Position numbers and translations under genes: made by a program. Shown piece after piece: positions 5,952 to 40,597 of a DNA stretch of 64,000 nt (position 1 is the stretch's first letter; every line of letters starts with the position of its first letter). The stretch is from Actinomycetales bacterium (GTDB lineage: Bacteria; Actinomycetota; Actinomycetes; S36-B12; UBA5976). Location: contig JAIXQF010000004.1 of the NCBI GenBank assembly GCA_027484085.1, positions 1,022,162-1,086,161 of the forward strand. The letters run 5' to 3'. The notes under the pieces are model-generated. The model did not search any database. It was not told where the DNA came from and saw only the letters and a list, made by a program, of their open reading frames with translations.

Positions 5952-6040
5952 GTCAATGTCTAGATTCAAAGAATCACAAGTGCATACCTATCCCCTCACT
6001 TGCCATTCAAGTGGTCACCGAGCCAGGACATAATCAATAC

Positions 6041-7726
6041 ATGCCAATCCTGGTCCCCGAGAATCCTTCTTTTGCTAATGATGCAGAAAAGGAAGTTTGG
6101 CTTGCCCTAAACAAAACACTCCCCGACACTTGCTGGCTGTTGCATGGTGTGCGAATCACTAATGTTTCGGGTGATCGTGAAGGTGATCTTATAGTCATGT
6201 GGCCTGAGAAGGGCATCGCCTTTATTGAAATCAAAGGCGGCTACATAACCTCTAAGTCCAACGGAAAGTTCACTCAAGGCTCAGGCAAAAACAAGCGTGA
6301 GATTGATCCAATTGACCAAGCACACGGTGCTATGTATCAGATTCGTGATTGGGTTTTATCTCATACCAGCCTTAGATACTGGTATCCGATGGTTGCAATG
6401 GCGGCCTTTCCAAATTCCGTTCTGGAACGTTCTTACGAGAGCACACGTGCCAAGCGCAGCCAATTCATTGACCGTGACGATCTGGTAAACGCATCCGATT
6501 TAGTACGAAGGTCAATTGAGTCACACTCTGGCCACGCAATTGCCCCGGTCACCGAGGACCTGGATCGAATTGCCCAGGCATTAGAAGCAAACATTTTGGA
6601 TGTAACTGACCCGGCATCGCTTGCACTGCTTATTGACTCTCGGACAGAGCTGGTAAACGAACTCGCAAAGGAGAACCTAAAACTCCTTGACTTTGTTTCA
6701 GAACTAAACCGCTTCGATGTTCGAGGAGCTGCCGGAACAGGGAAAACAGCTCTTGCCTTAGAGCACGCTAAGAGGCTTAAAAGACAGGGTAAACGTGTCG
6801 TGTTTCTTTGCTACAGCCGAGCACTCTCAGCTCATATTCGCCACCTTGTGGAGTCATGGGACAGATCTGAGCGCATAGATGTAGTCAGGACATTCCACGC
6901 CTTAGCTCGTGATTGGGGCGTAACTGTTCCAGCAGGAGTTACCGACGAATTCTGGGAATCAACTGCAACTCTTGAGTTGATTCAAAGAGCAACCCAAGCC
7001 CCTGACTCAGAGAAGTTTGATGCAGTGATCGTTGATGAGGCCCAAGACTTTGGTGTGAATTGGTGGGTTGCGGCAGCGGAGTTACTAAAGGACAAGGATC
7101 AAGGCGGACTTTATGCCTTCGGCGATCTTGGGCAAGGCATCTTCAATCGAGCAGGAACAGCAGATCTAGGTTTCGTGCCACTACGACTACATAAAAATCT
7201 GAGGAACGCAGAACCAATCGCAGATGCAGCAAACTACCTAACCGATACTCCAGCTCCAGCAGCTGGGCTTGATGGACCAGAGATTCGATTTGTTCAAGTT
7301 CCAGAGGATGCAAGCGACAATGAAATCATCTATGCGGCAGATGACGTAGTCGATTACCTTAGGGATGACTACGGCCCACAGCATGTCGCATTACTAACCA
7401 CAAAGAGTCGTCATCCAGTCCACAGAGAACTTGCGGATCGTGCTGCGGATGCGTACCTCAAAACGCTTTGGAAAACCGATGACATCTTCTATGGAACTGT
7501 GAGTGGATTTAAAGGCCTTGAGCGCAACTGCGTGATTCTCACAGTTAACGGATTCCATGACGAAGTTGATCCAAAGCGCCTGCTTTATGTTGGCATGACC
7601 AGGGCAAGGGATTTTCTGGTCATTGTGGCAAAGCGATCCGAGCTTGCTTCTGCATTGAACCCAGAATTAATGATTAGGCTTGAAAGACAAGTTATACAGT
7701 TAGGCGAACCCTGGATGAATAGATAA
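6041..7726 (+). CDS. NERD nuclease-domain / UvrD-like SF1 helicase
   Basis: A 561-residue protein. The N-terminal NERD domain (about residues 5-120) shows a PD-(D/E)XK core: EGDLIVM, then IEIKGG. The SF1 helicase part follows with Walker A GAAGTGKT (about residue 230), DEAQD (Walker B), the motif III-like GDLGQGIF, KNLRN, and the C-terminal YVGMTRARD. This architecture is known from phage-defence islands and plasmids and would couple DNA translocation to cleavage. The frame opens at a GTG at 6011, but homologous NERD proteins usually start just before the PENPSF block, so ATG 6041 is chosen; no clear ribosome-binding site for either. Convergent with the PLD gene. Confidence 0.85.
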   Translation: MPILVPENPSFANDAEKEVWLALNKTLPDTCWLLHGVRITNVSGDREGDLIVMWPEKGIAFIEIKGGYITSKSNGKFTQGSGKNKREIDPIDQAHGAMYQIRDWVLSHTSLRYWYPMVAMAAFPNSVLERSYESTRAKRSQFIDRDDLVNASDLVRRSIESHSGHAIAPVTEDLDRIAQALEANILDVTDPASLALLIDSRTELVNELAKENLKLLDFVSELNRFDVRGAAGTGKTALALEHAKRLKRQGKRVVFLCYSRALSAHIRHLVESWDRSERIDVVRTFHALARDWGVTVPAGVTDEFWESTATLELIQRATQAPDSEKFDAVIVDEAQDFGVNWWVAAAELLKDKDQGGLYAFGDLGQGIFNRAGTADLGFVPLRLHKNLRNAEPIADAANYLTDTPAPAAGLDGPEIRFVQVPEDASDNEIIYAADDVVDYLRDDYGPQHVALLTTKSRHPVHRELADRAADAYLKTLWKTDDIFYGTVSGFKGLERNCVILTVNGFHDEVDPKRLLYVGMTRARDFLVIVAKRSELASALNPELMIRLERQVIQLGEPWMNR

Positions 7727-7783: not shown

Positions 7784-9538
7784 CTACGGTTCATTACTCT
7801 CAAAAACTGGAGCCAGTTTAAATTGCCATCTACTTTTTACTGTTGACCATTCTATCTCTGTGATCAACACTCGGTGCTTTGTGTGCTTCGGGAAATCTTC
7901 ACTCAACTCTTCGATTGAATTGCATCCAGTCATGCTCACATGCATTAATCCTTCATAGGGACCGTCTTCAAGTCTCAAGAAAACACCAAAGTTAAGTAGA
8001 TTTTCAACAATTCCAGTGACAATCTGACCAGTCTGGAAGCTAGGTTGTATGTCGAAATCTGAGGCTATGGCGTCAGATCTAAAGCGTTTATCTCCTTTGC
8101 TTCGATGAACGAAAGAACGTGCTGCGCCTTCTGTGCGATTTACCGATGACTTTAACTTTCGTCGCTCTACATACTTACTCGCTCCCACCAGAAGATGCTC
8201 AGTTATCTCTGCCATCTGCGCTTCATAACTTAGGTCTGCAAATTCCCTATCAGTTATAACATCGCTATCTTCATCCCGATAATAGGTGCTCTCTTCATCG
8301 GGTCTGAAACTAAGCCAATTAAAGCTGCCCGCGACTTTAACATCATCGAATATAAGTACCTTTCCATGCGTGTTCTCGTGCCTCAAAATCGAAAGATTTG
8401 GATGTCGATCTGCAAGTCTTTCAAGTTTCCTCACGGTTGCGGCATCCGATTTCTCACCATCCTCATAGCCATGAACGATTGTGGCGACCACACCTCGGCT
8501 GGCGCATTCATCTAGTAAGTACAAGAATTCCTGGTCCACAACTGTCCCCTTAATCCACGGGCACTTGAGAAAGAATCTTTCCTTTGCAGTGGCCAATGCT
8601 GCCAACATAATTGGACGATGTTCAAAAACCTTTAGATTCCTGAGCCTTGGAACTGGGATTACGGGCAAGTCATCTTCATTCACTGACTCCCCGATTGTCT
8701 CAATTAGGCGGATACTCTCAAGCTGGGATACCTCAACACGCTCTTTCTCAATTTCTTGAGGGACTTCAGAAACATGTTCAATCTTCTCAATTGTTATCCC
8801 AAGTGAACTTACGCCACCTCGGGATGAAATTAATTCCTCGTGCTTCTCGCTAAATTCGCCGTCGATGTAGACTGCTGCTTGGGGCTCGGTATTGTGTCGA
8901 AGTTTGTAAATAATCAATTTTGCTATAAATCCGAAGTTACCTCTCTTGCGATTCACTGCCTCAATACGAATAACATTCGATTGTCCGCGTGTGTTTTGGG
9001 CCGCTTCCATAACGGCGCGCAAATCTCTAATCGGAATTGCTGCTTCAGTAACAGCCGCTTTTGTAATCTGGGGCAAGGTAACAAGTTCTGATTCCTTTAT
9101 AGCCTTTGACGAAACGCGCCGAGAAAAATCTACGGACGAAAGTTGGAAAATTGATTTATCAAAAAGAAAACTCGCCACATGTGCGGTGGGAACGATCTCT
9201 TGGTGCTCAATGGCTAATTTCCGTCCCACGGAAGTCAAGCTGAACCCTGCATCACGGTCATATCTAAGTGCTCCTGAGGAGACCAGTTCAGCAGCACACA
9301 ATTCAATTGCATCATCGCCATCAAGTCCAAGCAACTTAGATATTCGATCAAGTTTAACTTCGCCTTGCAGAATCAAGCGCAGTAAGAACTCGTGCAATAA
9401 GGGAAGGTCTTTCACTAACTGAACTACCATGTCTATCTCAACTGCAGACACCGGCACGATGCAATTGGGCATGGCAATAATTGTCGCCTCAGGATTCATT
9501 GCCAAGAAGCGCGAAGCCAAGACAAGTTCTTCATTCAT
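7784..9538 (-). CDS. winged-helix / phospholipase D-like / S1 RNA-binding protein
   Basis: A 584-residue protein with three recognisable parts. Residues about 45-115 form a winged-helix-like segment (LLGLDGDDAIELCAAELVSSGALRY). Around residue 390 one HKD motif, HGKVLIFDD, followed by GSFNW, marks a PLD-superfamily nuclease; a single motif means dimerisation is expected. Residues about 505-580 form an S1 domain (GQIVTGIVENLLNFGVFLRL, then GLMHVS), which binds RNA or single-stranded nucleic acid. The start overlaps the end of the kinase-helicase gene by 8 bases (ATGAATGA), so the pair is coupled. PLD nucleases paired with helicases are typical of defence systems (DISARM DrmC, Dpd), but the S1 fusion is unusual. 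Confidence 0.8.
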   Translation of the reverse strand: MNEELVLASRFLAMNPEATIIAMPNCIVPVSAVEIDMVVQLVKDLPLLHEFLLRLILQGEVKLDRISKLLGLDGDDAIELCAAELVSSGALRYDRDAGFSLTSVGRKLAIEHQEIVPTAHVASFLFDKSIFQLSSVDFSRRVSSKAIKESELVTLPQITKAAVTEAAIPIRDLRAVMEAAQNTRGQSNVIRIEAVNRKRGNFGFIAKLIIYKLRHNTEPQAAVYIDGEFSEKHEELISSRGGVSSLGITIEKIEHVSEVPQEIEKERVEVSQLESIRLIETIGESVNEDDLPVIPVPRLRNLKVFEHRPIMLAALATAKERFFLKCPWIKGTVVDQEFLYLLDECASRGVVATIVHGYEDGEKSDAATVRKLERLADRHPNLSILRHENTHGKVLIFDDVKVAGSFNWLSFRPDEESTYYRDEDSDVITDREFADLSYEAQMAEITEHLLVGASKYVERRKLKSSVNRTEGAARSFVHRSKGDKRFRSDAIASDFDIQPSFQTGQIVTGIVENLLNFGVFLRLEDGPYEGLMHVSMTGCNSIEELSEDFPKHTKHRVLITEIEWSTVKSRWQFKLAPVFESNEP

Positions 9539-12500
9539 AAAGAACAGCTTCCTCTACGCTGCAGTATTTATCATTTTCAATCACATATTTAGCAACCGTA
9601 CCCAAACCAGATTTCGAACCCAATGAGAAATCGAGGTTTCCAACTATTGTTAACAAATGCTTAGCTCTAGAAAGCGCCACGTTTAGGCGTCTCCAGTCTG
9701 ATAGAAATCCAACATTTGAACTATTATTTGACCGCACAAGACTTAAGAAAACAACGTCGGCCTGACGACCTTGGACCTGATCAATTGAAAGACATTCTGG
9801 ATCAATGACATTCCAATTCTTTGTTCGAATCGCCCTACTCAAGGCATTTACCTGTACTTTGTACGGGGAGATGACAAGTACATCAATTTCGCCAGGGTGA
9901 GCATCATTAGCCAACAAGGATCTATCCAATTCAACTAAGCGCCTAATGATGACTTCTACTTCAGCTGGATTGTGAAAACTATTGGAGTCCTTCGCTTGTT
10001 GCTCTAAAGAGTCAGAATTCAAGATTGCCGTATTCAACCATAGAACAGGTTTTTCTTGGAAACTCTGAAGTATTTGATTAAATTCACGCCCAGAAGAAAT
10101 CAGTCTGCCGCCATAAAAGCAATCTGAGACTAAGTTGCCAATACCCTGCACCATTCGATACTGGGTCGAGAGATTCGTTATCAAATTGCTTTGAAGAGAA
10201 TTCTCAAGGTATTCAAATAAAGTCTCATCAAATGTTCCCTGCGCAATTTGAGCTTCTTGTGCCAAGTCTTTTCCTGCTCGATACTCACTCAAGGGTGGGA
10301 GTTGCTTTGAGTCACCAACAAGAAGAACCTTTCTTGATTTTGCTATTGGAACCAATAGCTCATTTGCTGTCGCTTTTGAAGCCTCATCGATGATGCAAAG
10401 ATCAAATGTGAGTTGACTTACATTCTTAAGCCCAATGAAGCCAATTGCAGTTCCCGCTAGGACGGAGCGTGATGATAGAAAACTTTCAATTAAAGTGTTG
10501 TCTGTGGTCAGTCTTTCAAGCCATTCAGATTGCATATCAACAATTCCTTGAATAGTTTCAGACTCTTCGTTTGGCGGCACCAAGGAATGTTGAATGGTCC
10601 TCAATTGTGATTCATCTAGTAGTTCAGGAGAATCCAGTGAGAGATTTAACCAACTTGGAGAAAAAGCTCCCAACTGTTCTACTAACTTCGAGCGACGTTG
10701 ATCTATAGACGCCAACGTATCCTCAAAGTCATCTTCATTTTCAGAATCAAATGGTCCGATTGTCAGGGAAGTATATTGACCTTCTTCTTGTTTTGCTCTC
10801 TCAAGATCTCTCTCTAATCTCTGCTGTGAGTCCAAAAGTGATCGCAATTCACCTAGAATCTGGCTACTTCGTAGTCGATTGTGGTCAAGATTAAAAGCGG
10901 CCAACTCTGATTTAAGGAATTCAACCGAACGAGCTCGAACATCCTCTCGCCACTTCTCAGCCTGGATATCTAGGCGAAAGCCTTCAATGGTTTCGCTCAA
11001 CTCCCGTTCTGGTCGAGCAAGACGAACCATTCCGTTCACGCCCGCAGCCGCCAAACGTTCAAGCGCATTATCAACCGCAACATGGGTTTGGCTTACAAGT
11101 AGAACTCGGGCGCCGGGATTTGCTCTAAGAGTTTGCTGAACTAATTCAGTAATGAGCGCCGTCTTCCCAGTCCCTGGTGGTCCTTGCACAAGCGATAGAG
11201 TTTCCGATTGAAGGGCCACTAAAACTGCCCGTTTCTTATCCTCATCGATCGCACTCTCTTTTGAATCATCGCTAAACCATTGACCGATGGTAATTGAAGC
11301 ATCAATAGTTGCCGAGGTCGGAATGTTCAAGACCTCTCTAATACCTGGATTTGCACTTTCCCCAGATCTAATTGCGAGTAGAGCCTGCCTCTGCCTCTTC
11401 AGTGATTGGAAGGTGGCATTTCTTGATGGCCTGACAAGGCTAGCCTCTTTAACATTACCAACGCGCCCACGAGGTCTAACAATTAACTGATCGCCAGATT
11501 GATAAGCCAAGTCGCCTCTGGCAATGATTTTCTCGCCATCATTGGATACTAGTTCAACTTCTTCGCCAAGCTCGGAATAATCACGCTCCTCTCCATCGCC
11601 GATTTCGATTAGATCCACTTCCAGCCCGTTATTGGACTGAACGACTGCATTAACTCGAAAACTGGAAAGAGAAGAGTTCGCCAACTTCTCTTTGATTTCT
11701 AGAATTCGATCCAGTTGTTCAAGGTAGTCCCGTGGACCTACGTTTTCATTTGAAAGTGCTCCGAGTTTTGACTCTTGATGGGAATCGATAGCCTGCACAA
11801 GCCAATCAAGGCCATTCTTCGACAGACTTAAATTCAATTGACCAGTTAATGCAATTGGTAACTCATCATTAACCCACAATGCCCTACGCCTCATGTCTTC
11901 TAGTTGCGCGACTTGTTTTCCATAGGCTCGATAAACAGTGATAGCTCCCATTGCCCTATCTATCTCGCCAAATAGAATGCGCTCGGAAGTACCAATTAGA
12001 ATTTGGTTGCGGTCATCGCCTGACTTGTCAGCCTTGAGGCGAAACTCCGCGCAATACCCAGCACTCATCTCACTCATAATCTGCCCCAAAACTTCGGTTT
12101 TTGAAGGATTTCCAGGCATGTCCTCTGCAACGTGTTCTATAGCATTACTTTGTATTTCAAGCCTTAATATTCTCGCTTTCGCCACATCGGCAGCTATTCT
12201 CGACTTAAAGATTGCACGATACTCAGCCAGCAGTTCTACACCGTTATCAAAAACCCTATTTGGGTCGTTGTTGACACACTTCCTTAGCAGGGTGCCGAAT
12301 TCAGAATTTCTTGCCTCTACAGCATCTAATGAGGGCGCAACATCTTCAAACTTAGTCAACGTCTCACCATGTGCACACCTAAGCAGCAGAAGGCCCAGTG
12401 AATAAACGTCCCGTACGAATCGCTTATCTGTCGTTCGACTCCATGGGGGCGTGTACAGCGGTGAAGTCCACTCCATTGTCGTCAACTCGTTCTGTGTTTC

Positions 12501-13004
12501 ACTTTGGGTTTTTCCAATGCCGAAATCAATTAGTACAGGAATTGAGCCCGAGCGCAACATTACGTTTCCGAGGCTAATGTCACGATGTTCAACTGGATTT
12601 GGTTTCAGTGAGTGAGCATAAGCTATCGCTTCCACAAGTGGCAGACCGATAGAACGAAATGTTTCAGGTAACGAGCACTTACCTCCAGGTTGTTCAGATA
12701 GATATTCTTTGAGCGACTTCTGTATCCATTCGGTAGCCAAGTATGGCTGACCCTTAGATGTGACGCCATGATGTACGTACCTGACAATGTTCTCGTGTCT
12801 CAATGCACGTAGACTCGAAACGTCATTCTGATAAATCCTTCGAAGCATGCTGTCTTCTATGTCACCTTCGAAAATCTTTATCGCAACCTCTTGATCATTG
12901 GTTAGATCCCTTGCCTTGCAGACATAGGCAGTGCCGCCAAGCCGCTTCGCTTCCGCATTAATGAAACTAAAGCGTCCATCCAAAATTGGGGATTGGCTAA
13001 CCAT
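9531..13004 (-). CDS. Ser/Thr protein kinase fused to Upf1/Dna2-like SF1 helicase
   Basis: A 1157-residue fusion. The kinase part (residues about 10-270) is complete: VAIK with Lys43, HRD at 140-142, DFG at 160-162. After a middle region, the SF1B helicase has Walker A GPPGTGKT at 608-615, CIIDEAS (motif II), GDSKQLPP (III), STQYRM (IV), DQVQGRQADVV (V) and NVALSRAK (VI). A coiled stretch lies between motifs I and II. The start is supported by a leaderless-type -10 (TATCAT, minus strand 13016-13011) with exactly 6 bases before the ATG. It forms an overlapping operon with the PLD/S1 gene. I infer nucleic-acid sensing by the helicase, phosphorylation signalling and PLD cleavage; the combination does not match a defence system that I can name. 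Confidence 0.88.
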   Translation of the reverse strand: MVSQSPILDGRFSFINAEAKRLGGTAYVCKARDLTNDQEVAIKIFEGDIEDSMLRRIYQNDVSSLRALRHENIVRYVHHGVTSKGQPYLATEWIQKSLKEYLSEQPGGKCSLPETFRSIGLPLVEAIAYAHSLKPNPVEHRDISLGNVMLRSGSIPVLIDFGIGKTQSETQNELTTMEWTSPLYTPPWSRTTDKRFVRDVYSLGLLLLRCAHGETLTKFEDVAPSLDAVEARNSEFGTLLRKCVNNDPNRVFDNGVELLAEYRAIFKSRIAADVAKARILRLEIQSNAIEHVAEDMPGNPSKTEVLGQIMSEMSAGYCAEFRLKADKSGDDRNQILIGTSERILFGEIDRAMGAITVYRAYGKQVAQLEDMRRRALWVNDELPIALTGQLNLSLSKNGLDWLVQAIDSHQESKLGALSNENVGPRDYLEQLDRILEIKEKLANSSLSSFRVNAVVQSNNGLEVDLIEIGDGEERDYSELGEEVELVSNDGEKIIARGDLAYQSGDQLIVRPRGRVGNVKEASLVRPSRNATFQSLKRQRQALLAIRSGESANPGIREVLNIPTSATIDASITIGQWFSDDSKESAIDEDKKRAVLVALQSETLSLVQGPPGTGKTALITELVQQTLRANPGARVLLVSQTHVAVDNALERLAAAGVNGMVRLARPERELSETIEGFRLDIQAEKWREDVRARSVEFLKSELAAFNLDHNRLRSSQILGELRSLLDSQQRLERDLERAKQEEGQYTSLTIGPFDSENEDDFEDTLASIDQRRSKLVEQLGAFSPSWLNLSLDSPELLDESQLRTIQHSLVPPNEESETIQGIVDMQSEWLERLTTDNTLIESFLSSRSVLAGTAIGFIGLKNVSQLTFDLCIIDEASKATANELLVPIAKSRKVLLVGDSKQLPPLSEYRAGKDLAQEAQIAQGTFDETLFEYLENSLQSNLITNLSTQYRMVQGIGNLVSDCFYGGRLISSGREFNQILQSFQEKPVLWLNTAILNSDSLEQQAKDSNSFHNPAEVEVIIRRLVELDRSLLANDAHPGEIDVLVISPYKVQVNALSRAIRTKNWNVIDPECLSIDQVQGRQADVVFLSLVRSNNSSNVGFLSDWRRLNVALSRAKHLLTIVGNLDFSLGSKSGLGTVAKYVIENDKYCSVEEAVLYE

Positions 13005-13251: not shown

Positions 13252-13296
13252 TAGACAACACGTCGATCAGAATCCTATAATCGAACAAATGTTCTA
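13252..13296 (+). promoter_or_regulatory. sigma70-type promoter overlapped by a LexA (SOS) box
   Basis: TAGACA (-35, 13252-13257), an 18-base spacer and TATAAT (-10, 13276-13281) are followed at once by TCGAACAAATGTTCTA (13281-13296). The last is the same sequence type as the lexA and recA boxes in this window (TCGAAC-N4-GTTC). LexA bound here would block the promoter. The next plus-strand gene is the TPR protein (13396), then the methyltransferase. The rest of the 376-base gap 13005-13380 holds the kinase promoter; a 65-codon minus-strand frame inside it (13130-13327) has no coding support. Confidence 0.65.
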
Positions 13297-13395
13297 ATTT
13301 AGAGATTTTGGGCCTATTCCTAGTCATTTCCCTGAACTAAGAATTGTCAGTATCCACCCCTAGATTAAAACTCCCCAAGTTTGAACGGAGCCCCA

Positions 13396-14469
13396 GTGAG
13401 CGATTTCGACGAAATGACAATTGATGAACTTTGGACTGAGATGGAGTCATCTGATGGGTTCCATAAAGGCCAGGTCCTCTTTGCCCTATTTAACCGAAAG
13501 TACGACGCAAATGACTTTGGCCTAGCTCATGCTTATGCAATCCAAGCCAGTGAGGTATTTAAAGAATCTGGTCATCCACGCGAGTACGCAATGGCGCTGG
13601 TTTACTCCGGCAACGCTAAGCACGCTCAAGAAAACTATGTCGATGCCATCGCCTACTATGACCAAGCCGATGAACCAACTATTGCTTACGGTGAGAACGA
13701 AGACCTCGCCATCTTGCAAGGCAATAAAGCAAACTCTTATCTTGCAGCCGATCGTTTCCATGAGGCTCACGATGGCTACCTTGCAGCCGAAGCTCTCTTT
13801 GCCGCGGCTCAAATTCATGTCCGGGCCTACTCGATGGCACTTGAACTTGGTGATCTCCAGATGCGCTTTGGCCAATATGAGCTAGCACTGGAAACCTATA
13901 CTCGTGCTCGTTCTTACATCGTTGGTCATGGCGACGTAACTCAAGTTGCCACCGCAGAAGGAAGGATTGCTGACTCTCTCCTGCGACTTGATCGAACGGA
14001 TGAAGCCATCACCCATGCTCGTGAAGATCTCAACATGTCTAAGACATGTCCGTGCCCTAGGTGTGTTCCTGATGCACACCTTCGTCTTGGCAAATGCCTT
14101 GTCAAAGCCGGCCAGATAGATTCAGGCGTTGAATACATTGAGAAGGCGCTTGAAGCATTTCACAAAATCAATGAACCAGGGATGCAAGGACATTGTCTAT
14201 TCGCAAAGGCAACAGCGCTAAAGGAATCTGATCCCACGCAGGCAAGAGACTTACTTGAACAGGCACGGAGCATCTATACAGGGCTTGACTGGTCATGGCC
14301 CCTGGACAAAGTTCTAGTTTCTATCGCAGATTTGGATTTGGCAGAAGGAAACAGTGCCGACGCCATATCCACCTACGAACAAGTTTTAGTGCGCGCAAAG
14401 GAGCTGAGTCGCCATGGACTTGAAAGTGAAGTAGAGGAAAAACTGTCTAAGTTCCAAGCACCATTGTAG
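13396..14469 (+). CDS. tetratricopeptide repeat protein with Cys cluster, SOS-box promoter
   Basis: A 357-residue protein made almost wholly of TPR-like helical hairpins (for example ALVYSGNAKHAQENYVDAIA and MQFGQYELA-type repeats), so a protein-protein scaffold. A CPCPRC cluster with a further Cys lies near residue 215, a possible metal site unusual in a TPR array. No membrane segment. GTG 13396 is chosen because GGAG lies 6 bases before it, although the frame opens at TTG 13381. It follows the promoter with a LexA box by about 100 bases and precedes a cytosine methyltransferase by 70 bases. Function unknown; a link to DNA damage is inferred from the box only. Confidence 0.75.
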   Translation: MSDFDEMTIDELWTEMESSDGFHKGQVLFALFNRKYDANDFGLAHAYAIQASEVFKESGHPREYAMALVYSGNAKHAQENYVDAIAYYDQADEPTIAYGENEDLAILQGNKANSYLAADRFHEAHDGYLAAEALFAAAQIHVRAYSMALELGDLQMRFGQYELALETYTRARSYIVGHGDVTQVATAEGRIADSLLRLDRTDEAITHAREDLNMSKTCPCPRCVPDAHLRLGKCLVKAGQIDSGVEYIEKALEAFHKINEPGMQGHCLFAKATALKESDPTQARDLLEQARSIYTGLDWSWPLDKVLVSIADLDLAEGNSADAISTYEQVLVRAKELSRHGLESEVEEKLSKFQAPL

Positions 14470-14527
14470 GCGATTCGGCACCAACTACTAAACCACCTCG
14501 GAACTAGCTATTGTCGGTGACATCAAG

Positions 14528-14533
14528 TAAGCT
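14528..14533 (+). promoter_or_regulatory. leaderless -10 element of the methyltransferase gene
   Basis: TAAGCT stands 6 bases before the ATG at 14540, the spacing of a leaderless actinobacterial transcript. The -35 is weak. This could give expression independent of the SOS-type promoter upstream of the TPR gene. Confidence 0.4.
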
Positions 14534-14539
14534 ATTCAC

Positions 14540-15865
14540 ATGGCCGCAAAATTCACCTACATTGACCTATTCGCAGGAATTGGCGGGTTTCACGCAGCCC
14601 TGTCTGCCATGGGCGGCGAATGTGTTGCGGCGGTAGAAATTGACCCTCGCGCTGCCGCCATATATGAGATGAATTGGGGCACTCCTGCCCTTGCTGACAT
14701 AACTGAAATTGCAAATGACAATGGCGTAAAACTGCCCAAGCACGACGTACTAGTCGCAGGATTTCCCTGCCAGCCATTCTCAAAATCTGGTGCTCAGCGA
14801 GGAATGGATGAAACCCGCGGCACGCTTTACTGGAATATCCTCAAGATAATTGAAAAGCACCACCCTGCAATCGTTCTGCTTGAGAATGTTCGCAATCTTG
14901 CTGGTCCGCGTCACGTGCACGAATGGGAAGTAATTATAGAGACCCTTCGCGCTGAGGGATATCGAGTTAGTGATACGCCAGCAATCTTTAGTCCTCATCT
15001 ATTGGACAAGAAGCACGGTGGACGTCCTCAGATTCGTGAACGGGTATTTATCGCAGCTACTTATGTTGGTAAAAAGTTATCCCAGGCAGACTTAGAAGTT
15101 GAACCCCCTGTTTCAAATAAGCCGATCGCAGGTTGGGATCCCCAGAATTGGTATCTAAGTGCCGACTTATTGGATGCCCACGATGAACTACCTGAGGAGT
15201 CATTGCTTTCGAAAGAAGAAATCAAGTGGATAGATGCTTGGGATGACTTTGTATTAAAGATGCTTAAGTCCCGTAAGGGTGAGAAACTCCCTGGTTTCCC
15301 TCTTTGGTCGGACTCATGGGTGCTTCCCGAGGATCTTGATATTGAAGAAGGAACTCCTGGCTGGAAAATCGACTTTCTTCAGAAGAATTCAAATTTCTAT
15401 GCTGACCATCAGAAACTTATTGATAGCTGGAAAACCAAATGGAAAGTTTCTGAGTTTCCGCCATCACGAAGAAAACTTGAATGGCAAGCACAAGACGCTC
15501 AATCTTTGTGGGAAACAGTAATGCACTTTAGGCCCTCCGGGATCCGTGCAAAGAAGGCTACGTATTTGCCCGCGCTTGTTGCTATAACTCAAACTTCAAT
15601 CATTGGCCCTGAAAAGCGCCGACTGACTACACGTGAGGCCGCTAGGCTTCAGGGGTTTCCTGATTCATTTAAGTTCGACGGCCAGTCCCCTGCTGCAACA
15701 TTTAAACAACTTGGCAATGGCGTGAACATTGGTGTGGTTTGGCATGTTCTTAAGCAACTTGCGGAACGAGATGCGAAGATTCTGACAAAACGTAAACCTG
15801 AATTGCTAGACGCAATTTCCAGTTCGCCCATGTCACCTGATGCAATTCTGCGGAAACGTAGATAA
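14540..15865 (+). CDS. DNA (cytosine-5-)methyltransferase, C5 type
   Basis: A 441-residue enzyme transferring a methyl group from S-adenosylmethionine to C5 of cytosine in DNA. Motifs are in the canonical order: I DLFAGIGGFHAAL (residues 9-21), IV GFPCQPFS with the catalytic Cys near 78, VI ENVRNL, VIII QIRERVF, and X QLGNGVNIGVV near the C-terminus. A long region between VIII and X (about 200-345) is the target-recognition part, larger than in the second methyltransferase of the window. It converges on the minus-strand operon with a 16-base gap. It may be the protective methylase of that operon, like DruM of Druantia type II, or a separate system. Confidence 0.92.
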   Translation: MAAKFTYIDLFAGIGGFHAALSAMGGECVAAVEIDPRAAAIYEMNWGTPALADITEIANDNGVKLPKHDVLVAGFPCQPFSKSGAQRGMDETRGTLYWNILKIIEKHHPAIVLLENVRNLAGPRHVHEWEVIIETLRAEGYRVSDTPAIFSPHLLDKKHGGRPQIRERVFIAATYVGKKLSQADLEVEPPVSNKPIAGWDPQNWYLSADLLDAHDELPEESLLSKEEIKWIDAWDDFVLKMLKSRKGEKLPGFPLWSDSWVLPEDLDIEEGTPGWKIDFLQKNSNFYADHQKLIDSWKTKWKVSEFPPSRRKLEWQAQDAQSLWETVMHFRPSGIRAKKATYLPALVAITQTSIIGPEKRRLTTREAARLQGFPDSFKFDGQSPAATFKQLGNGVNIGVVWHVLKQLAERDAKILTKRKPELLDAISSSPMSPDAILRKRR

Positions 15866-25452: not shown

Positions 25453-26439
25453 CTAAATAGGCAGTTCGGCAAACTGAATCTCGGATCCTCTTGCTTTTGA
25501 TATATCTAATGAATACTTGGGGTTTCTAGGCGCACCATTCGGTTGTTTACCCTGAGCAAATTGATTAAGCAATCCATCTCGAAGGGCGCTTTCGAGAACT
25601 GACTCATCCGGAATGAAAAACGCCTCTAAGTGAGTTGGGGTAAAAACTTCCTTTAATTGCTTAATTGGCTCCCCCTCGGAACCGCGAAACTGCTTATGCC
25701 ATCTCGAGAATTCGAGGCTGTAGGTTGGATCACCGCTAAGTACCACTAATCCCAATCCACCCTCACCAACAACCTGCCTCATTGCTAATTGATCGTTTAG
25801 TTGACAGGCCTTGTTAACGCTTTTTGGGCCAGCCACTCCGAAGTTACTGTGGACCTTTAAATCCCATACTCTTTGCAGTTGATAATCAAATTCCGTGAAT
25901 CCAATTTTCACGGGACCGCCACCTAATGAGTTGACTAAATGGCCGATAGCGCGAAACTCAAAATAGAATCCTTGCCATTCAGTTTGCCTCCACTTGGTCG
26001 AACCGCCTTCTTTCATCTCAATTACACAATCTTTACCAATCCAATTCTTCGGTATCGACTTCTTTGCTATGTTCAGGATCGAGTTTGCTTCATCAGTCAA
26101 AGAAGTCCATGTATTTGGGCTAGCTGTCTTACGAAAGTGCACTTCTGAAAATTCTAAAATTCGATTAAGGCCCACCAAGGTGATCGTTTGACCGGTGGAC
26201 TCACAGTCTGAATTCCACTTTCCACCTAAATAACTCAGCAGTCTTTCGCCCAGCTGTTGCTTTGACAGGGATTCAGCATCCAGGTCAAGGTTTAGACCGT
26301 TGGCCAAATTGATAAGAACGCGCTTGCGTTCTTTACTTCCAGGTCCAAGGTCTTCTGGACCGCTATTGGTTAGATTGCTTATGCGCCCAACCGCCTCAAG
26401 TTTACTTTTTGCGGGCGCAAATTGACTGTCTAGGCTCAT
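25453..26439 (-). CDS. putative PD-(D/E)XK restriction endonuclease-like protein
   Basis: A 328-residue protein. The segment FYFEFRAIGHL ... EFDYQLQRVWDLKVHS reads as a PD-(D/E)XK core: Glu in the helix, Asp of EFD, then D-L-K. That is the layout of type II restriction endonucleases; the exact family is not recognised. The C-terminal half (ADESVLE-like helices, SLEFSRWHKQFRG) would hold target recognition. It lies 44 bases after the HpaII-like endonuclease and 95 bases before the large protein, all in one direction. It may be a second endonuclease, or a nuclease subunit of the Druantia-like module. Confidence 0.6.
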   Translation of the reverse strand: MSLDSQFAPAKSKLEAVGRISNLTNSGPEDLGPGSKERKRVLINLANGLNLDLDAESLSKQQLGERLLSYLGGKWNSDCESTGQTITLVGLNRILEFSEVHFRKTASPNTWTSLTDEANSILNIAKKSIPKNWIGKDCVIEMKEGGSTKWRQTEWQGFYFEFRAIGHLVNSLGGGPVKIGFTEFDYQLQRVWDLKVHSNFGVAGPKSVNKACQLNDQLAMRQVVGEGGLGLVVLSGDPTYSLEFSRWHKQFRGSEGEPIKQLKEVFTPTHLEAFFIPDESVLESALRDGLLNQFAQGKQPNGAPRNPKYSLDISKARGSEIQFAELPI

Positions 26440-26483: not shown

Positions 26484-27539
26484 TTACCTGGACTTGAACC
26501 TAATTTGTAAGTTGAGTTTAATCCTTGATTCACCTTGAAAGTCATACACTTGCCCGAAACCATGCTTGCTTGCAGACGGCGTTTCAAACCTCAAATGCCT
26601 AAATAAGTAGTCCTCGAACTTTTGCAAGTTGTAGAGATAGTAAAAAAGGACATCTCCATTCTCCTTAACAAGAAGTAGCCCACCAAAATCTTCAGGGTAC
26701 CCTGACCAAATTTTATTTGCTCGCAAGCCCATAGAGGCTGCACTCAAAAACTTCTTAATCTTGCTTACCTGAAGCGCGTTACCTTTTTTTTCATTAGCCC
26801 AAGTTGTCTTACAAAGCGAAGATAGATTTGTAGTTGAACTTAGGTAATAGTTGAGCATTAACTCAGCTAGGTATTCAGGCAAATTACTATCAATATTTTC
26901 AAGGCTTTGCTCAAATGTTGAGTTATCGTACTCAACAAATTCCAAGGAGTGGCCTTTGTCAACGAGTGCGCGAAGGTTTGTTTTTACAGCAGATGCACTC
27001 AGAAATGGTTCAGGCCGCGGATTGCCGAGAATTTTAAACGTCAAATTTGTTGAGCCTGATGCATTAAAGATCGTAGCGGGACTTCCTATTTCAGATTTAA
27101 TACTGAAGCTGCGCTTTGGTGTCGCGATTCTGGTCTCAATATCCTCAAGAATTAGATGCAGGTCTTCCACGTTTGACGAGCTTGAACTGAGTCTTTCGCG
27201 CATCAGCAACTTCAGAAGGGCATCTCCAGAAGGTAGGTTAAATGCCCTAGAACCCGTGTGTTTAACTAATGCCTTGAAGAAGGCATCCAAATTAGGAGCT
27301 AGATTTTCTCTCTCTATTCTTACAATTCCTATTCCATTTTGTGTTACCTGAATGTCAGAGTTTCCAAGTGTATAAACTGTTTCCAAACTTCCGCTTGGAT
27401 TGTCCACAACCTGAAGAACCTTATAGAAAATAGAGGTGTCTCTTCTTGCATTCTCGTCTGCTCCAAAGCCGCCGCCATTTAGAAGCAGGTATCCAATTGC
27501 ATAAAGTTCGGACCACTCACCTCTATTTGCGGAGTTCAT
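26484..27539 (-). CDS. HpaII-family type II restriction endonuclease
   Basis: A 351-residue protein. Features I associate with the HpaII endonuclease family are the N-terminal NRGEWSELYAIGYLL, the central SIKSEIGSPATIFNASG (Ser-x-Lys after an acidic cluster) and the C-terminal FETPSASKHGFG...KLNLQIRF. Family members cut CCGG, so this specificity is expected but not shown here. The start ATG overlaps the stop of the cytosine methyltransferase (ATGA), the normal arrangement of a methylase with its endonuclease. The region is AT-richer than the core genes, which fits transfer. Confidence 0.8.
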   Translation of the reverse strand: MNSANRGEWSELYAIGYLLLNGGGFGADENARRDTSIFYKVLQVVDNPSGSLETVYTLGNSDIQVTQNGIGIVRIERENLAPNLDAFFKALVKHTGSRAFNLPSGDALLKLLMRERLSSSSSNVEDLHLILEDIETRIATPKRSFSIKSEIGSPATIFNASGSTNLTFKILGNPRPEPFLSASAVKTNLRALVDKGHSLEFVEYDNSTFEQSLENIDSNLPEYLAELMLNYYLSSTTNLSSLCKTTWANEKKGNALQVSKIKKFLSAASMGLRANKIWSGYPEDFGGLLLVKENGDVLFYYLYNLQKFEDYLFRHLRFETPSASKHGFGQVYDFQGESRIKLNLQIRFKSR

Positions 27540-28405
27540 TTTGAATTCTTTTTATGTTCTAATGAGCGAATCATTGATTCAGCCCAGTCCTGGATGGCGT
27601 TAACTGCAACGCTATTTCCTAGCTGTTTGAGAGCCTCCGAGTTTGAGACTGGGAATTCAAAATCATCAGGAAAACCTTGCATTTTCTTGCCTTCGGTTGG
27701 AGTTATTCTCCGAACCTCTCCATCCACAATGTAACCATCCCAATTTCTGCGATCATCGATTGGGGATCTTCCTCCACCTACTCTTAGGGTAAAACCAACT
27801 TCCCGATTAACTTGGCCTTTCATGACATCAGACATATTGAAAAGCAAATCTTTTTTCTTTGGATGCTCAAATGGTGTATCAGGATTCTTGAAGCCAACCA
27901 TGAATAACCTAGGTCTATGTTGAGGAAGTCCATGTTCAGACGCTTTAACAATTGAATAGTGAAGCGAATAACCAAGATCAATAGTCAGTGCGTTTTTGAT
28001 AACTTGGAACGTCTTGCCTTCGTCGTGCTTGAAGAGACCACGCACATTTTCAAGAAAAAATGCTTGTGGTTGCTTTATGCGAATTATTTCGGCTATGTCA
28101 AAAAACAAGGTTCCACGTGTATCATCAAATCCGAGCTTATGACCAGCCTGGCTGAAAGGCTGGCAAGGAAATCCAGCACATAAAATATCAAAATCGGGGA
28201 TGGACGCTTTATCGACTTTTGTTATGTCCCCCACGTAATTGCCTGATTCAAACAATTTTGGTGAAATTTCTTTGAAGTTCAATTCATAAGTTTTTCTTGC
28301 ATTTTCATCCCATTCAGATGCAAATACACACTCAGCTCCAAGGTTATGTAGGGCTAAATGGAATCCACCAATTCCCGCAAATAGGTCAATAAACTTGTAA
28401 GTCAT
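27536..28405 (-). CDS. DNA (cytosine-5-)methyltransferase of the restriction system
   Basis: A compact 289-residue C5 methyltransferase. Motif I DLFAGIGGFHLAL (6-18), IV GFPCQPFSQAG with the catalytic Cys, VI ENVRGL, VIII QHRPRLFMVGF, the target-region block FTLRVGGGRSPIDDRRNWDG, and X QLGNSVAVNAI. It overlaps by 4 bases the HpaII-like endonuclease, so it is that enzyme's protective methylase; CCGG is the expected site. It is preceded by 67 bases from the DUF2075 gene, room for a separate promoter so that methylation can come first. Confidence 0.92.
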   Translation of the reverse strand: MTYKFIDLFAGIGGFHLALHNLGAECVFASEWDENARKTYELNFKEISPKLFESGNYVGDITKVDKASIPDFDILCAGFPCQPFSQAGHKLGFDDTRGTLFFDIAEIIRIKQPQAFFLENVRGLFKHDEGKTFQVIKNALTIDLGYSLHYSIVKASEHGLPQHRPRLFMVGFKNPDTPFEHPKKKDLLFNMSDVMKGQVNREVGFTLRVGGGRSPIDDRRNWDGYIVDGEVRRITPTEGKKMQGFPDDFEFPVSNSEALKQLGNSVAVNAIQDWAESMIRSLEHKKNSK

Positions 28406-28472: not shown

Positions 28473-30206
28473 TTAGGCCTTTAGACTCATTCTTGCTGAA
28501 ATCAGCTTTCGTAATTCCAAATCGCAAACGTAAACAAAAGTTCCTTTAATCCCCCGTGTCAAAAGGACACGATATATATTCAAGACATACTGCAAAATCT
28601 CATCGTCAGAATATTTCACACCTAATACCTTGTTATTCTCTTTGCCTTTTGCGTCAAAGTAACAATTACGATTAAACACAATCTTTTGATTAATTGGGTC
28701 ATAGCCCAAATCATTTCCAATAATTACTCCCGCAAAATTCAGATCATAACCTTGAATTGTGTGAATACTCCCAACTTCGTTAACAGAATTTGGTGAATTT
28801 ACCCAGTCTTTTACTGTTTGATTCCAACGCAACTGATGTCCATCTATATCGATGTCGTACAAATCTGGATTCTTTTTTGATTTGTACTTCCATGCAAACC
28901 CAGCCAACAGTCTTGATAAACCAACTTCTTCATTTAAATAAAGAATGTCGTTCCTCATGGATTCAAAATCATCATAAAATCTCAAGTCGTATCCGTTGAA
29001 ATCTCTTTTTAGCGCTGGGGAATCTGAGAACAACTTGTTGACAAAATTTAGATAATCGTTGCCACCCTTTATGCGCATTTGTGAAACAAGTTGGAATAGC
29101 CTCGAATCATTCTTTGCTGTATTGATAATTTCATGTGTAATTGTCAGTGGCAAATCGCCTGGCTTAACGCTCTGCTCTGGATCCAGTAGAAGTAATTGAT
29201 GCGTACTTTTAGTTTCAATCCAATCCAATTGTGTTTTGGTTTTATCATCAATTCCAAAAAGCTTAATGTTCGCTTCCGTGAATTGCTTATTTAGCATTGC
29301 GGATGACTGATTCGCTCGTTGTCCCAATCGATGCGCCTCATCAACAATGAGTAAGTCAAAGTGCATTTCACTTTTAGCTACTTCAAATGGCGTTAGAACC
29401 ATGCTTTTATCCAAGCCAGGAGTCTGTGCGAAGACCTTTTCTATAGTCTCGCGCAAGGATTGCTGGGGAACCACAAGTGCAATCTTCATGTTTTCAAAAA
29501 GTTCCGCATACTCGCTGCTAAAGAAGTCGGCAAAAATCGAATCTTGATCAGAAAGGTCGTCTATGGACATCTGTGCAATGTCCCGTAATAGCTTAATTAA
29601 ATAGATTGCAACGATCGTCTTTCCGGTTCCTGGCTCGCCTTGAACAATTAATTGTGAGCCTTGATTTGCTTCTGCATCCGTGGATAGTCGCTTGATGATT
29701 TCTGACAATGCAATTTCTTGATCTACATTAAGTGCCTTAAATGGTGAGAACTTAAACAAATTACTATTTATGATTTCTGATGCCGGTCGAGACAGCAGTC
29801 CATCATTGACTAAAATTTCAAAAATTTCATTAAATGAATCTCGATATTCATCTCGTTGGTAGTAATTGCCACTTGCCATACCCGCATTGGCATTTAGAAC
29901 TTTGTGCTTGCCATCGGCGGAAAACAGTGAAATCAGTTTAGATTCAAGATCTGTGCATACTGATCGATTGAACTTTTCATTCAAGATAATTCCGACTTGA
30001 CTTAGATGCTTCTTTTTCTCGTGGGCAAGATGTTGGTAAAATCTTTTTGTTGCACTCTTAGTTTCCCCAACATAAACCGACTTGTCGTCACTTAGCAGAT
30101 AAACGACTGGCCAGTCACGCGCTATGGCATTTGAAAGTGACCAAGTAATGATTGATTCTTGATCAAAAGGCATTTTGATTAACTCAAAGTCGGTCATACT
30201 TATCAC
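28473..30206 (-). CDS. GIY-YIG nuclease / DUF2075 (P-loop NTPase, helicase-like) protein
   Basis: A 577-residue fusion. N-terminal GIY-YIG module: VVYLLSDDKSVYVGET (residues about 34-49), an Arg in SATKRFYQH and Glu in TDLESKLI. The C-terminal DUF2075 ATPase has Walker A GEPGTGKT (about residue 190), DLLIVDEAHRLG, LLLDPEQS, and the helicase-like HTIQGYDLN and LLTRGIKG. DUF2075 proteins are common in defence islands. The GTG start at 30206 has AAAGGG 5 bases upstream and overlaps the MazG-like gene by 23 bases; an ATG three codons later is the alternative. Second gene of the operon. Confidence 0.85.
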   Translation of the reverse strand: MISMTDFELIKMPFDQESIITWSLSNAIARDWPVVYLLSDDKSVYVGETKSATKRFYQHLAHEKKKHLSQVGIILNEKFNRSVCTDLESKLISLFSADGKHKVLNANAGMASGNYYQRDEYRDSFNEIFEILVNDGLLSRPASEIINSNLFKFSPFKALNVDQEIALSEIIKRLSTDAEANQGSQLIVQGEPGTGKTIVAIYLIKLLRDIAQMSIDDLSDQDSIFADFFSSEYAELFENMKIALVVPQQSLRETIEKVFAQTPGLDKSMVLTPFEVAKSEMHFDLLIVDEAHRLGQRANQSSAMLNKQFTEANIKLFGIDDKTKTQLDWIETKSTHQLLLLDPEQSVKPGDLPLTITHEIINTAKNDSRLFQLVSQMRIKGGNDYLNFVNKLFSDSPALKRDFNGYDLRFYDDFESMRNDILYLNEEVGLSRLLAGFAWKYKSKKNPDLYDIDIDGHQLRWNQTVKDWVNSPNSVNEVGSIHTIQGYDLNFAGVIIGNDLGYDPINQKIVFNRNCYFDAKGKENNKVLGVKYSDDEILQYVLNIYRVLLTRGIKGTFVYVCDLELRKLISARMSLKA

Positions 30207-34222: not shown

Positions 34223-34358
34223 GTTGTCCTCCTCATGGACTTAATGTCTCTTTTTCTCATCGGGTTGATAAAAGAGAAAACTAGATATTCATTTTTGTTT
34301 GGTTTGTTAGGAAGTTTGTCTTAGTTGTGGGAAGGGCTTTCGGGGGAAGTGAAAGTTT

Positions 34359-34847
34359 CTAGCTCGCGGGTTCTTTTTGCTTTACAGCGGCCGGAACCTT
34401 TGAGGGCGCAGATCGCAAGTCCTCGATTTCTAATTCGAAGTCTGCGATGGATTCGAATGAGCGATACACACTTGCAAATCGCAAGTATGCAACTTCATCT
34501 AGTTCACGAAGCGGACCAAGGATTGCAAGGCCAACTTCGTTACTTGGAACTTCAGCGTGGCCCGAAGCGCGAAGGTTTTCTTCGACTTGAGCTGCCAAAA
34601 TTGCAAGATCGTCTTCAGTAACAGGTCGGCCTTGGCAAGCGCGGCGTACGCCAGCGATTACCTTGTCGCGACTAAACGGTTCTGCTACCCCATTGCGCTT
34701 AACAATGTTGAGTGTGATGGTTTCGTTTGTAGTGAACCGGCGGGAGCACTCTGGGCACTCGCGACGACGACGAATACTTAGACCTTCATCGCTGGAACGG
34801 GAATCGATTACGCGGGAATCGTCATGTTGGCAGAATGGGCACTTCAT
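34359..34847 (-). CDS. nrdR: transcriptional repressor NrdR
   Basis: A 162-residue repressor of ribonucleotide reductase genes. The N-terminal zinc ribbon [17 protein letters not shown]...[10 protein letters not shown] is followed by the ATP-cone ([16 protein letters not shown] ... [11 protein letters not shown]) that senses ATP/dATP. ATG 34847 is chosen because MKCPFC is the universal start and GGGAG lies 6 bases upstream; the frame extends 7 codons further. First gene of the nrdR-nrdJ operon, and likely autoregulated through the two NrdR-box-like sites upstream. Confidence 0.96.
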
Positions 34848-34952
34848 GTCTAACTCCCTTCGATTCAAGTCTTCGTTCTAGTTCGGTTCGATCTAGCTCA
34901 GACCCCACATCTTGTGGTGTCCGTTTTGGGGCTATTTCTAGCTCCGCTTGCC

Positions 34953-35005
34953 TGTTATTCGTGTTACTGGTGTTACTTGGTGTTATCTCGTGTTACTGGT
35001 GTGAC
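34953..35005. repeat. iterated TGTTA(C/T) repeats, 9-10 base period
   Basis: TGTTA begins at 34953, 34962, 34971, 34981 and 34991, followed by TGTGA at 35000. The repeats lie about 100-150 bases upstream of nrdR, in its probable leader, and read as TAACA repeats in the sense strand. Not a palindrome, so either a leader RNA feature or sites for a regulator in phase with the helix turn. Confidence 0.6.
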
Positions 35006-35101
35006 ACCCAAAAAGTGTGCATTTCTCCAGGTTGTGGATCCTTTTGGGGATAACCTGTGTGGAGAAAACCACAATCTGTGGGTGAATCACATTGCTGTGA
35101 C

Positions 35102-35115
35102 CACTAGATGTAGTG
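35102..35115. promoter_or_regulatory. NrdR box 1
   Basis: CACTAGATGTAGTG, the reverse complement of the actinobacterial NrdR-box form CACTACATCTAGTG known upstream of nrd operons. Imperfect palindrome about 255 bases upstream of the nrdR start. The gap 34848-35297 between nrdR and the oxidoreductase holds this box, box 2 and the TGTTA repeats, and no gene that I can support. Confidence 0.65.
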
Positions 35116-35185
35116 ATGACTTTATTGGTAAATGGGCAGGGGCGCAAGCGTTTTACCTATATATGGCGTTTTGGGCGTGTCGCGA

Positions 35186-35201
35186 CCACTAGATGATGTG
35201 G
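35186..35201. promoter_or_regulatory. NrdR box 2
   Basis: CCACTAGATGATGTGG, a second, less perfect NrdR-like palindrome 85 bases (about eight helical turns) from box 1. An AT-rich stretch (TATATA on both strands, 35158-35163) between the boxes could hold the promoter. Confidence 0.55.
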
Positions 35202-35297
35202 TTTTTGGGGCTGTTGGACCGTTTCGAGGCGGATTTAGGTGGCAAATATCGGATATTGGGCCAATTGCGGCCGTTTTTCAGCTGGTATTTCCGCCTG

Positions 35298-36479: not shown

Positions 36480-36557
36480 CTTTAAAGGCTACGGGTGGGA
36501 TTTGGGCAAATGGCTAGCGGGATGGGCTGGCTTGGGCTGAAAACTCCAGAAAATCCA

Positions 36558-39692: not shown

Positions 39693-39725
39693 TCGAACAA
39701 GTGTTCTAATCGAACGTATGTTCTA
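39693..39725. promoter_or_regulatory. two adjacent LexA boxes (LysM gene side)
   Basis: TCGAACAAGTGTTCTA (39693-39708) and TCGAACGTATGTTCTA (39710-39725), one base apart, 67 bases upstream of the LysM gene start. Both fit the actinobacterial SOS consensus TCGAAC-N4-GTTCGA. Confidence 0.85.
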
Positions 39726-39762
39726 TTTGTACACCCCACCTACGACACTTTGCAAGTTATAT

Positions 39763-39778
39763 TCGAACAAATGTTTGA
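39763..39778. promoter_or_regulatory. LexA box (lexA side)
   Basis: TCGAACAAATGTTTGA, 112 bases upstream of the lexA start; a half-site GTTCTA follows at 39794-39799. It would give autoregulation of lexA. Confidence 0.8.
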
Positions 39779-39889: not shown

Positions 39890-40597
39890 ATGGCTAAGAA
39901 TGATTCGAACACCCCGGAATCAGGTGCCCAGATTGTGTCCCTGCCAGATGGCCCAGACGGCGATGATGGCTTAACACCACGTCAGCGGTTGATCATGGAA
40001 ATGATCACCACCACCACTGCCGAGCGGGGATATCCGCCAAGTGTGCGCGAGATCGCGGACGCAGTTGGCCTAGCTAGCCCATCGAGCGTGCAGCATCAGT
40101 TAGGTGTTCTGCAGAAAAAGGGTTTCATTAACCGCGATGCCACTCGCGCTCGTGCGTTGGACGTTTTGAGCCAAGAAGTTTCCGGTATGCCTGAACATCT
40201 ACTTGAGGGTGACCTTAACCCTGCTGCGGCTTATGTGCCACTAGTTGGTCGCATTGCTGCAGGTGGTCCAATCCTGGCGGAGCAAGCTGTCGAAGAAATC
40301 TTCCCGCTACCTAAGTCACTTGTTGGCGAAGGTGAGCTATTCATGCTTAAGGTCTCTGGCGATTCAATGATTGATGCTGCGATTTGCGATGGTGACTTTG
40401 TTGTAGTTCGTCGCCAGCCAACTTGCGAGAACGGTGACATTGTTGCTGCGCTACTTGACGATGAAGCAACTGTGAAGACGTTCAAGAAGCGTGATGGACA
40501 TGTTTGGTTGATGCCGCATAACCCGGCTTACGAACCAATTGCTGGCGATCATGCAACCATCATGGGCAAAGTCGTTTCGGTTTTGCGCAAAGTCTGA
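39890..40597 (+). CDS. lexA: SOS repressor LexA
   Basis: A 235-residue repressor-protease. The N-terminal winged helix ([12 protein letters not shown]...[20 protein letters not shown]) binds the SOS boxes. The C-terminal peptidase has the cleavage site in [11 protein letters not shown], the catalytic Ser in [11 protein letters not shown] and Lys in DDEATVKTF. When RecA filaments form, LexA cuts itself and the regulon is released. The boxes before it, before the LysM gene, before recA and before the TPR gene at 13396 define the visible regulon. An acidic 30-residue N-terminal extension precedes the HTH, as in other actinobacteria. Confidence 0.97.

What the first reader, a model, noticed from the sequence alone, without database searches (positions are those of the whole stretch)
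13252..13296. LexA-controlled promoter inside the defence island
TAGACA-18-TATAAT overlaps TCGAACAAATGTTCTA, the same box type as at lexA and recA in this window. The transcript would run into the TPR gene and possibly the 5mC methyltransferase. SOS control of a methylase or of its partner would make sense if foreign-DNA restriction causes self-damage: more methylation when the chromosome is cut.
Basis: partly seen in the sequence, partly recalled or inferred. Interest (0 to 1): 0.62.

Follow-up and report, generated by a model that had tools for sequence, protein, structure and literature searches.

The report
SOS switch before a defence methylase
A DNA-damage (SOS) control site sits before a small gene and a DNA-methylating enzyme in an anti-phage gene cluster, and related enzymes in many actinobacteria carry the same kind of site, which suggests that these bacteria make more of the protective DNA mark when their own DNA is damaged.

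Summary
TAGACA-18-TATAAT lies at 13252-13281 and a LexA box, TCGAACAAATGTTCTA, at 13281-13296. The box scores with the lexA, recA, ruvC and imuA'-dnaE2 boxes of the same 1.8-Mb genome. It stands before a TPR gene (13396-14469), followed 70 bp on by a DruM-type 5mC methylase (14540-15865) between Mokosh-like and Druantia-II-like genes. Homologues of the TPR gene lack a strong box, but homologues of the methylase often have one: 42 of 108 promoters against 0.6 expected, in 21 of 68 unrelated promoter groups, with at least 15 gains or losses on the tree. The published Streptomyces LexA motif gives 33 of 108 against 2.4 expected. The same promoters are loaded with AGCT (TAAGCT as -10 element), which suggests an AGCT-specific methylase that senses its own mark. 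Best reading: DNA damage derepresses the methylase, so that newly made, unmodified host DNA is protected from the cell's own nuclease. Not shown: LexA binding, induction, read-through from TPR into druM (which also has its own promoter), and the protective purpose. Some homologous boxes lie about 60 bp upstream of the -10 and may serve a divergent gene, in some loci vsr.

The parts
13252..13281 (+). promoter: -35 TAGACA (13252-13257), 18 nt, -10 TATAAT (13276-13281)
   Evidence: 11 of 12 consensus positions
13281..13296 (+). LexA (SOS) box TCGAACAAATGTTCTA overlapping the expected transcription start
   Evidence: score 24.1, as strong as the boxes at lexA and recA
13396..14469 (+). TPR gene (357 aa, GTG start, GGAG at 13387-13390), first gene behind the box
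   Evidence: Pfam TPR_12 4.6e-20; distant homologues in relatives
14506..14533 (+). probable leaderless promoter of druM: AGCT at 14506 and 14530, TAAGCT -10 at 14528-14533, 6 nt before the ATG
   Evidence: the same TAAGCT-6/7-start arrangement in 46 of 108 druM-family promoters
14540..15865 (+). druM: 5-methylcytosine DNA methylase (441 aa), likely second gene behind the box
   Evidence: PADLOC DruM2 PDLC00034 5e-197, Pfam PF00145
15882..16964 (-). DruK-like PD-(D/E)XK nuclease
   Evidence: PDLC00060 1.5e-83, PF12705
16967..22273 (-). DruE2-like helicase
   Evidence: PDLC00015, 1690 bits
22286..25429 (-). DruF2-like protein
   Evidence: PDLC00023, 1061 bits
25453..26439 (-). unnamed protein with FDY-(6)-WDLK, also beside homologous methylases; candidate partner endonuclease
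   Evidence: no hit in PADLOC, Pfam or NCBIfam; motif largely conserved; model too poor to tell
9531..13004 (-). MkoA-like kinase-helicase, divergent from the TPR gene
   Evidence: PDLC03920 4.9e-187
7784..9538 (-). MkoB-like protein (PLD-like and S1 domains)
   Evidence: PDLC03922 6.3e-43
39693..39778 (+). three LexA boxes before lexA (39693, 39710, 39763), reference sites
39890..40597 (+). lexA
   Evidence: PF01726 and PF00717
51691..51706 (-). LexA box of recA (recA 50397-51491, minus strand), reference site

Best explanation
13281-13296 is a working LexA operator. In undamaged cells LexA sits over the start site of a strong promoter and keeps the TPR gene, and by read-through part of druM, low. 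When RecA filaments make LexA cleave itself, TPR and DruM rise. Extra DruM re-methylates host DNA that repair and recombination-dependent replication leave unmodified, so the cell's own defence nucleases (DruE/DruK or the 25453-26439 protein) do not cut it: a transcriptional form of restriction alleviation. A second promoter directly in front of druM carries AGCT, probably the methylase's own target, and gives feedback. Shown by sequence: box, promoter, geometry, recurrence of the box before homologous methylases, AGCT enrichment. Inferred: LexA binding, read-through, AGCT specificity, protection.
For: Box strength and genome-wide company. No terminator-like site between TPR and druM. Boxes before the methylase family: 42 of 108 distinct promoters with score >=10 against 0.59 expected from 3118 control windows of the same loci, >=14: 31 against 0.14; 21 of 68 promoter groups against 0.37; the label needs >=15 changes on a tree of 107 homologues (41 with box), shuffled mean about 33. 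Independent motif from Streptomyces ChIP-seq, tCGAAC-N4-GNNCGa (PMC9380542, passages): 33 of 108 against 2.4; three altered motifs 2-3 of 108. In 23 of the 37 boxes listed the box starts 0-2 nt after a -10-like hexamer, the window's own arrangement (-1). 24 of 24 lexA promoters of those genomes carry the same kind of box. Precedent: loss of a 5mC mark lets a Vsr-like nuclease cause SOS in Caulobacter (PMC12907096, passages); recombination makes unmethylated sites that provoke EcoKI (PMC11109961, passages).
Against: The box is 1.24 kb from druM and druM seems to have its own promoter. The nearest DruM homologue (66%, L053/L240) has no box within its 17-kb stretch, nor do two of the four other DruE-linked loci have one at the methylase (L083; L064/L251). 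66 of 108 homologous promoters have none. Seven homologous boxes lie 57-65 bp upstream of the -10 and may serve a divergent gene. Of 7 methylases of another family one also has a box, so the link may not be special to this family. In E. coli, plasmid-driven EcoKI alleviation does not need SOS. No host-type LexA site in 35 non-actinobacterial relatives, judged by recalled motifs.
Confidence: 0.57

Rival explanations
1. LexA controls the TPR gene alone; druM is run by its own AGCT promoter and the recurrence before other methylases is a separate story.
For: Box stands directly before TPR; druM has TAAGCT 6 nt before its ATG; nearest druM homologue has no box.
Against: Same strand, 70 bp apart, no terminator-like site between; TPR homologues lack a strong box, methylase homologues have one far above chance.
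Confidence: 0.25
2. SOS control serves attack: phage infection that damages DNA raises the whole defence.
For: The box lies in a defence island with Druantia-like and Mokosh-like genes.
Against: Only TPR and druM lie downstream; DruE, DruF and DruK are on the other strand without a box (scan of the window), and more methylase would mark phage DNA as self. The box is about 277 bp from mkoA, which has a candidate promoter of its own at its start (read).
Confidence: 0.12
3. The box belongs to another regulator with a LexA-like palindrome, for example one that belongs to the defence system.
For: Many homologous boxes have the GCTCGA half instead of GTTCGA.
Against: GNNCG is allowed in the measured Streptomyces LexA motif; the window's box is of the same type as the genome's own lexA and imuA' boxes; 24 of 24 host lexA promoters have the same box type.
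Confidence: 0.05
4. Chance palindrome.
For: Two of nine genome-wide places lie inside genes and are presumably chance.
Against: No site of score >=20 in 60 simulated 64-kb sequences; the site overlaps a near-consensus promoter.
Confidence: 0.02

Closest known systems
Actinobacterial LexA/SOS regulon (Streptomyces venezuelae ChIP-seq, PMC9380542)
   Same: Box tCGAAC-N4-GNNCGa in the promoter; same kind of site at lexA, recA, ruvC and dnaE2 in this genome
   Different: In the main text searched there, 'methyltransferase', 'methylase' and 'restriction' do not occur; here a defence methylase unit is the target
Druantia type II
   Same: DruM2, DruF2 and DruE2 models match strongly
   Different: No match to DruG among the listed hits of 15 proteins scanned; a DruK-like nuclease, a TPR gene and an unnamed motif-bearing protein are present; SOS control not found in print in our searches
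Restriction alleviation of type I systems (EcoKI, ClpXP)
   Same: Same problem: unmodified host sites after recombination provoke the cell's own nuclease
   Different: There proteolysis of the nuclease, not dependent on SOS (PMC11109961); here transcription of the methylase
Caulobacter ScmA methylase and VsrA (PMC12907096)
   Same: 5mC methylase protects against a nuclease that otherwise triggers SOS; vsrA is suspected to be under LexA
   Different: There the nuclease, not the methylase, is the suspected LexA target; the window's genome has no Vsr
M.AluI-type 5mC methylases (AGCT)
   Same: AGCT is the palindrome most enriched in the promoters of this family
   Different: Kinship with M.AluI is recalled, not tested; specificity not measured

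Membership tests
SOS (LexA) regulon | box equal in type to the host's LexA boxes, in a promoter core | tested here: met
SOS (LexA) regulon | lexA and recA present in the genome, with boxes of their own | tested here: met
   both in the window, with boxes; imuA'-dnaE2 and ruvC boxes elsewhere
SOS (LexA) regulon | box conserved before orthologues of the first gene (TPR) | tested here: not met
   0 of 19 distant homologue loci reach score 14; L033 has 13.3 and L034 10.2; no close orthologue found
SOS (LexA) regulon | box recurs before homologues of the second gene (druM) | tested here: met
   42 of 108, expected 0.59; 21 of 68 groups, expected 0.37
SOS (LexA) regulon | LexA binding and induction by damage | not testable with these tools
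   needs binding assay and RNA-seq
Druantia type II | DruE2, DruF2 and DruM2 together | tested here: met
Druantia type II | DruG (a component by recall) | tested here: not met
   no DruG family among the listed hits of the 15 island proteins scanned; tables for the best-matched proteins are cut at 25 rows
Mokosh type I | MkoA and MkoB adjacent | tested here: met
   PDLC03920 4.9e-187, PDLC03922 6.3e-43
AGCT-specific (AluI-type) 5mC methylase | methylates AGCT | not testable with these tools
   indirect only: AGCT 162 observed, 31 expected in 108 promoters

The most novel reading that the evidence does not exclude
In actinobacteria LexA has been recruited again and again to the promoters of one family of 5mC defence methylases (Druantia-II-like and stand-alone or Vsr/Z1-linked systems). 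Damage-induced modification is thus a general safety valve against self-restriction, a transcriptional counterpart of restriction alleviation. It is layered on a feedback in which the methylase's own target AGCT forms its -10 element, and in Nocardioidaceae one AGCT lies inside the LexA box together with the start codon, so that methylation and SOS meet on one operator.
Probability: 0.45. Interest if true: 0.75.

Novelty: new variant of a known kind. Interest (0 to 1): 0.6.

Why it matters
How cells with restriction-like defences avoid cutting their own DNA during repair, when fresh unmodified DNA appears, is open for most systems. A LexA switch on the methylase would be a simple answer and makes predictions that one damage experiment can test in culturable genera such as Oerskovia, Pedococcus, Aeromicrobium or Nocardioides. 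It also links the DNA-damage response to defence genes on the protective side, not on the attacking side.

Tried and rejected
Conservation before TPR homologues: rejected. Conservation before mkoA homologues: 5 loci, best score 9.0. Host-type LexA motifs (recalled) before 35 non-actinobacterial methylase relatives: nothing convincing (one search was repeated because its empty output looked wrong). Plasmids: no match for TPR or DruM. Phages: three records with at least 80% of the query covered, best 54% identity; not followed further than fetching one stretch. TPR in genome contigs: no relative confirmed. Control methylase family: only 7 loci found, 1 with a box, too few to say the box is special to DruM. 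Structure of the 25453-26439 protein from a two-row alignment: mean pLDDT 45, unusable, so no fold search was run. Literature: no paper on LexA control of Druantia or of a restriction-modification methylase found in searches; the library lacks most subscription journals.

Full report
What is there. The box TCGAACAAATGTTCTA differs by one base from the perfect palindrome found before imuA'-imuB-dnaE2 in the same genome (genes read from the translations) and scores 24.1 on a matrix built from six other SOS sites, which themselves score 21.6-26.2. The -10 hexamer ends on the first base of the box, so LexA would cover the start site; the third lexA box and the imuA' box sit the same way behind a -10-like hexamer (0 and 2 nt; read by eye).

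Genes around it. To the left, on the other strand, MkoA- and MkoB-like genes; to the right, on the box's strand, a TPR gene and 70 bp later a DruM2-type 5mC methylase; then, convergent, DruK-, DruE2- and DruF2-like genes and an unnamed protein. No DruG match appeared among the listed hits of the 15 proteins scanned, so I call this Druantia-II-like. There is no terminator-like site between TPR and druM. druM has its own probable leaderless promoter, TAAGCT 6 nt before the ATG. mkoA starts about 277 bp from the box and has a TATCAT hexamer 6 nt before its ATG (read), so it is unlikely to be the target.

Which gene does the box follow in evolution? Homologues of the TPR gene (19 loci) and of mkoA (5 loci) have no strong box. 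Homologues of druM do. From three whole-genome searches (394, 294 and 396 genomes with overlaps) plus named contigs and one viral contig I took 116 loci; in 4 the conserved motif could not be located and 4 were near-copies, which leaves 108. In the 160-bp promoter window 42 of 108 score >=10, where 17 of 3118 equal windows elsewhere in the same loci do (0.59 expected); 31 against 0.14 at >=14; 7 against 0.03 at >=18. The literature motif of S. venezuelae (passages of PMC9380542) hits 33 of 108 against 2.4 expected, while three altered motifs hit 2-3. Examples: Oerskovia turbata TAGAACACGTGTTCGA, Pedococcus cremeus TCGAACATGGGTTCGA, and Nocardioidaceae-type TCGAACATGAGCTCGA with the methylase's start codon inside.

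Independence. By blastn the 108 promoters fall into 68 groups; 21 have a box, 0.37 expected. On a FastTree tree of 107 homologues (41 with box) plus the window's DruM, the box label needs 15 changes (14 forced by supported branches; about 33 for shuffled labels). So the box is clustered in clades but has been gained or lost many times. 24 of 25 of these genomes have a LexA domain hit, and all 24 lexA promoters carry the same type of box.

Limits of that result. In 23 of the 37 boxes listed the box starts 0-2 nt after a -10-like hexamer. Seven lie 57-65 bp further upstream and four 19-29 bp upstream. Of the far ones, at least L059/L246 and L075/L259 have a divergent Vsr gene (Pfam PF03852) that may be the real target. 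Among the loci with DruE in reach, the box is present at L086 and L259 (far position) and absent at L083 and L251. The nearest homologue of the window's DruM has none in its 17-kb stretch. One of 7 methylases of another family also has a strong box, so the link could be wider than this family.

A second signal. AGCT is the most enriched 4-base palindrome in the 108 promoters: 162 against 31 expected, in 81 promoters. Per promoter there are 1.5 AGCT against 0.3 in 184 other promoters of the same loci, and TAAGCT occurs 6 or 7 nt before the start in 46 cases, against a single TAAGCT anywhere in the 184 controls. AGCT is the target of M.AluI (PMC11879396, passages). That DruM is of the AluI kind is recalled and inferred. 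A methylase whose own site forms its -10 element would regulate itself. In the GCTCGA type of LexA box one AGCT lies inside the operator.

Mechanism. Unmodified host DNA after breaks and recombination is what provokes EcoKI (PMC11109961, passages), and in Caulobacter loss of a 5mC mark lets a Vsr-like nuclease cause SOS (PMC12907096, passages). SOS-driven methylase synthesis would close that gap. In the window the candidate cutters are DruE, DruK and the 25453-26439 protein (FDY-(6)-WDLK motif; model unusable); the genome has no Vsr. The most doubtful step here is read-through from TPR into druM.

Literature. The searches named in Tried and rejected found no report of LexA control of Druantia or of a restriction-modification methylase. 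The one paper with Druantia and LexA (PMC13192584, passages) is about type III and uses a LexA inhibitor on Zorya.

Verdict. A real LexA operator (about 0.95 by my judgement), a likely SOS-controlled TPR-druM unit (about 0.65), and a protective role as the best of several explanations (about 0.5). The recurrence of LexA boxes before this methylase family is the part worth following.

Noticed in passing
14506-14533 and homologous promoters: AGCT, mostly as TAAGCT -10 element 6-7 nt before the start codon, is strongly enriched in druM-family promoters; suggests autoregulation by the methylase's own target site.
   Followed up: partly
25453-26439: Unnamed protein without Pfam, NCBIfam or PADLOC match; relatives lie beside homologous methylases (L240, L250, L259, L088); candidate endonuclease by motif only.
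   Followed up: partly
26484-28405: A second 5mC methylase with a type II restriction enzyme match (PDLC03563, 5.7e-61) in the same island.
   Followed up: no
6011-7726 and 28473-30206: NERD-helicase protein (PADLOC RTasNERD-Hel 1.7e-35) and a second helicase-like protein with weak PADLOC matches, further candidate defence genes.
   Followed up: no
31358-40597: The island lies beside the class II ribonucleotide reductase gene, nrdR and lexA. In L084, L086, L089, L249, L250 and L253 the methylase sits close behind a ribonucleotide-reductase-like gene, and lexA is within about 30 kb of the methylase in six of the searched genomes: a shared insertion spot?
   Followed up: partly
L368 (another 5mC methylase family): LexA-like box ACGAACATCTGTTCGA (score 20.2), at -124 from the match start; the only one of 7 control loci.
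   Followed up: no
L059/L246, L075/L259: LexA-like box between druM and a divergent vsr gene; SOS control of vsr is an alternative reading.
   Followed up: partly
L030, L031: TPR relatives in the same genus stand just behind a gene that looks like an ECF sigma factor (by eye), without a LexA box.
   Followed up: no
G000 contig C11:162396-163688 (L079): The genome has a second DruM-family methylase (53% identity) without a LexA box.
   Followed up: no
L242, 4.8 kb upstream of its methylase: A near-perfect LexA box TCGAACAGATGTTCGA (25.7) before something not examined.
   Followed up: no
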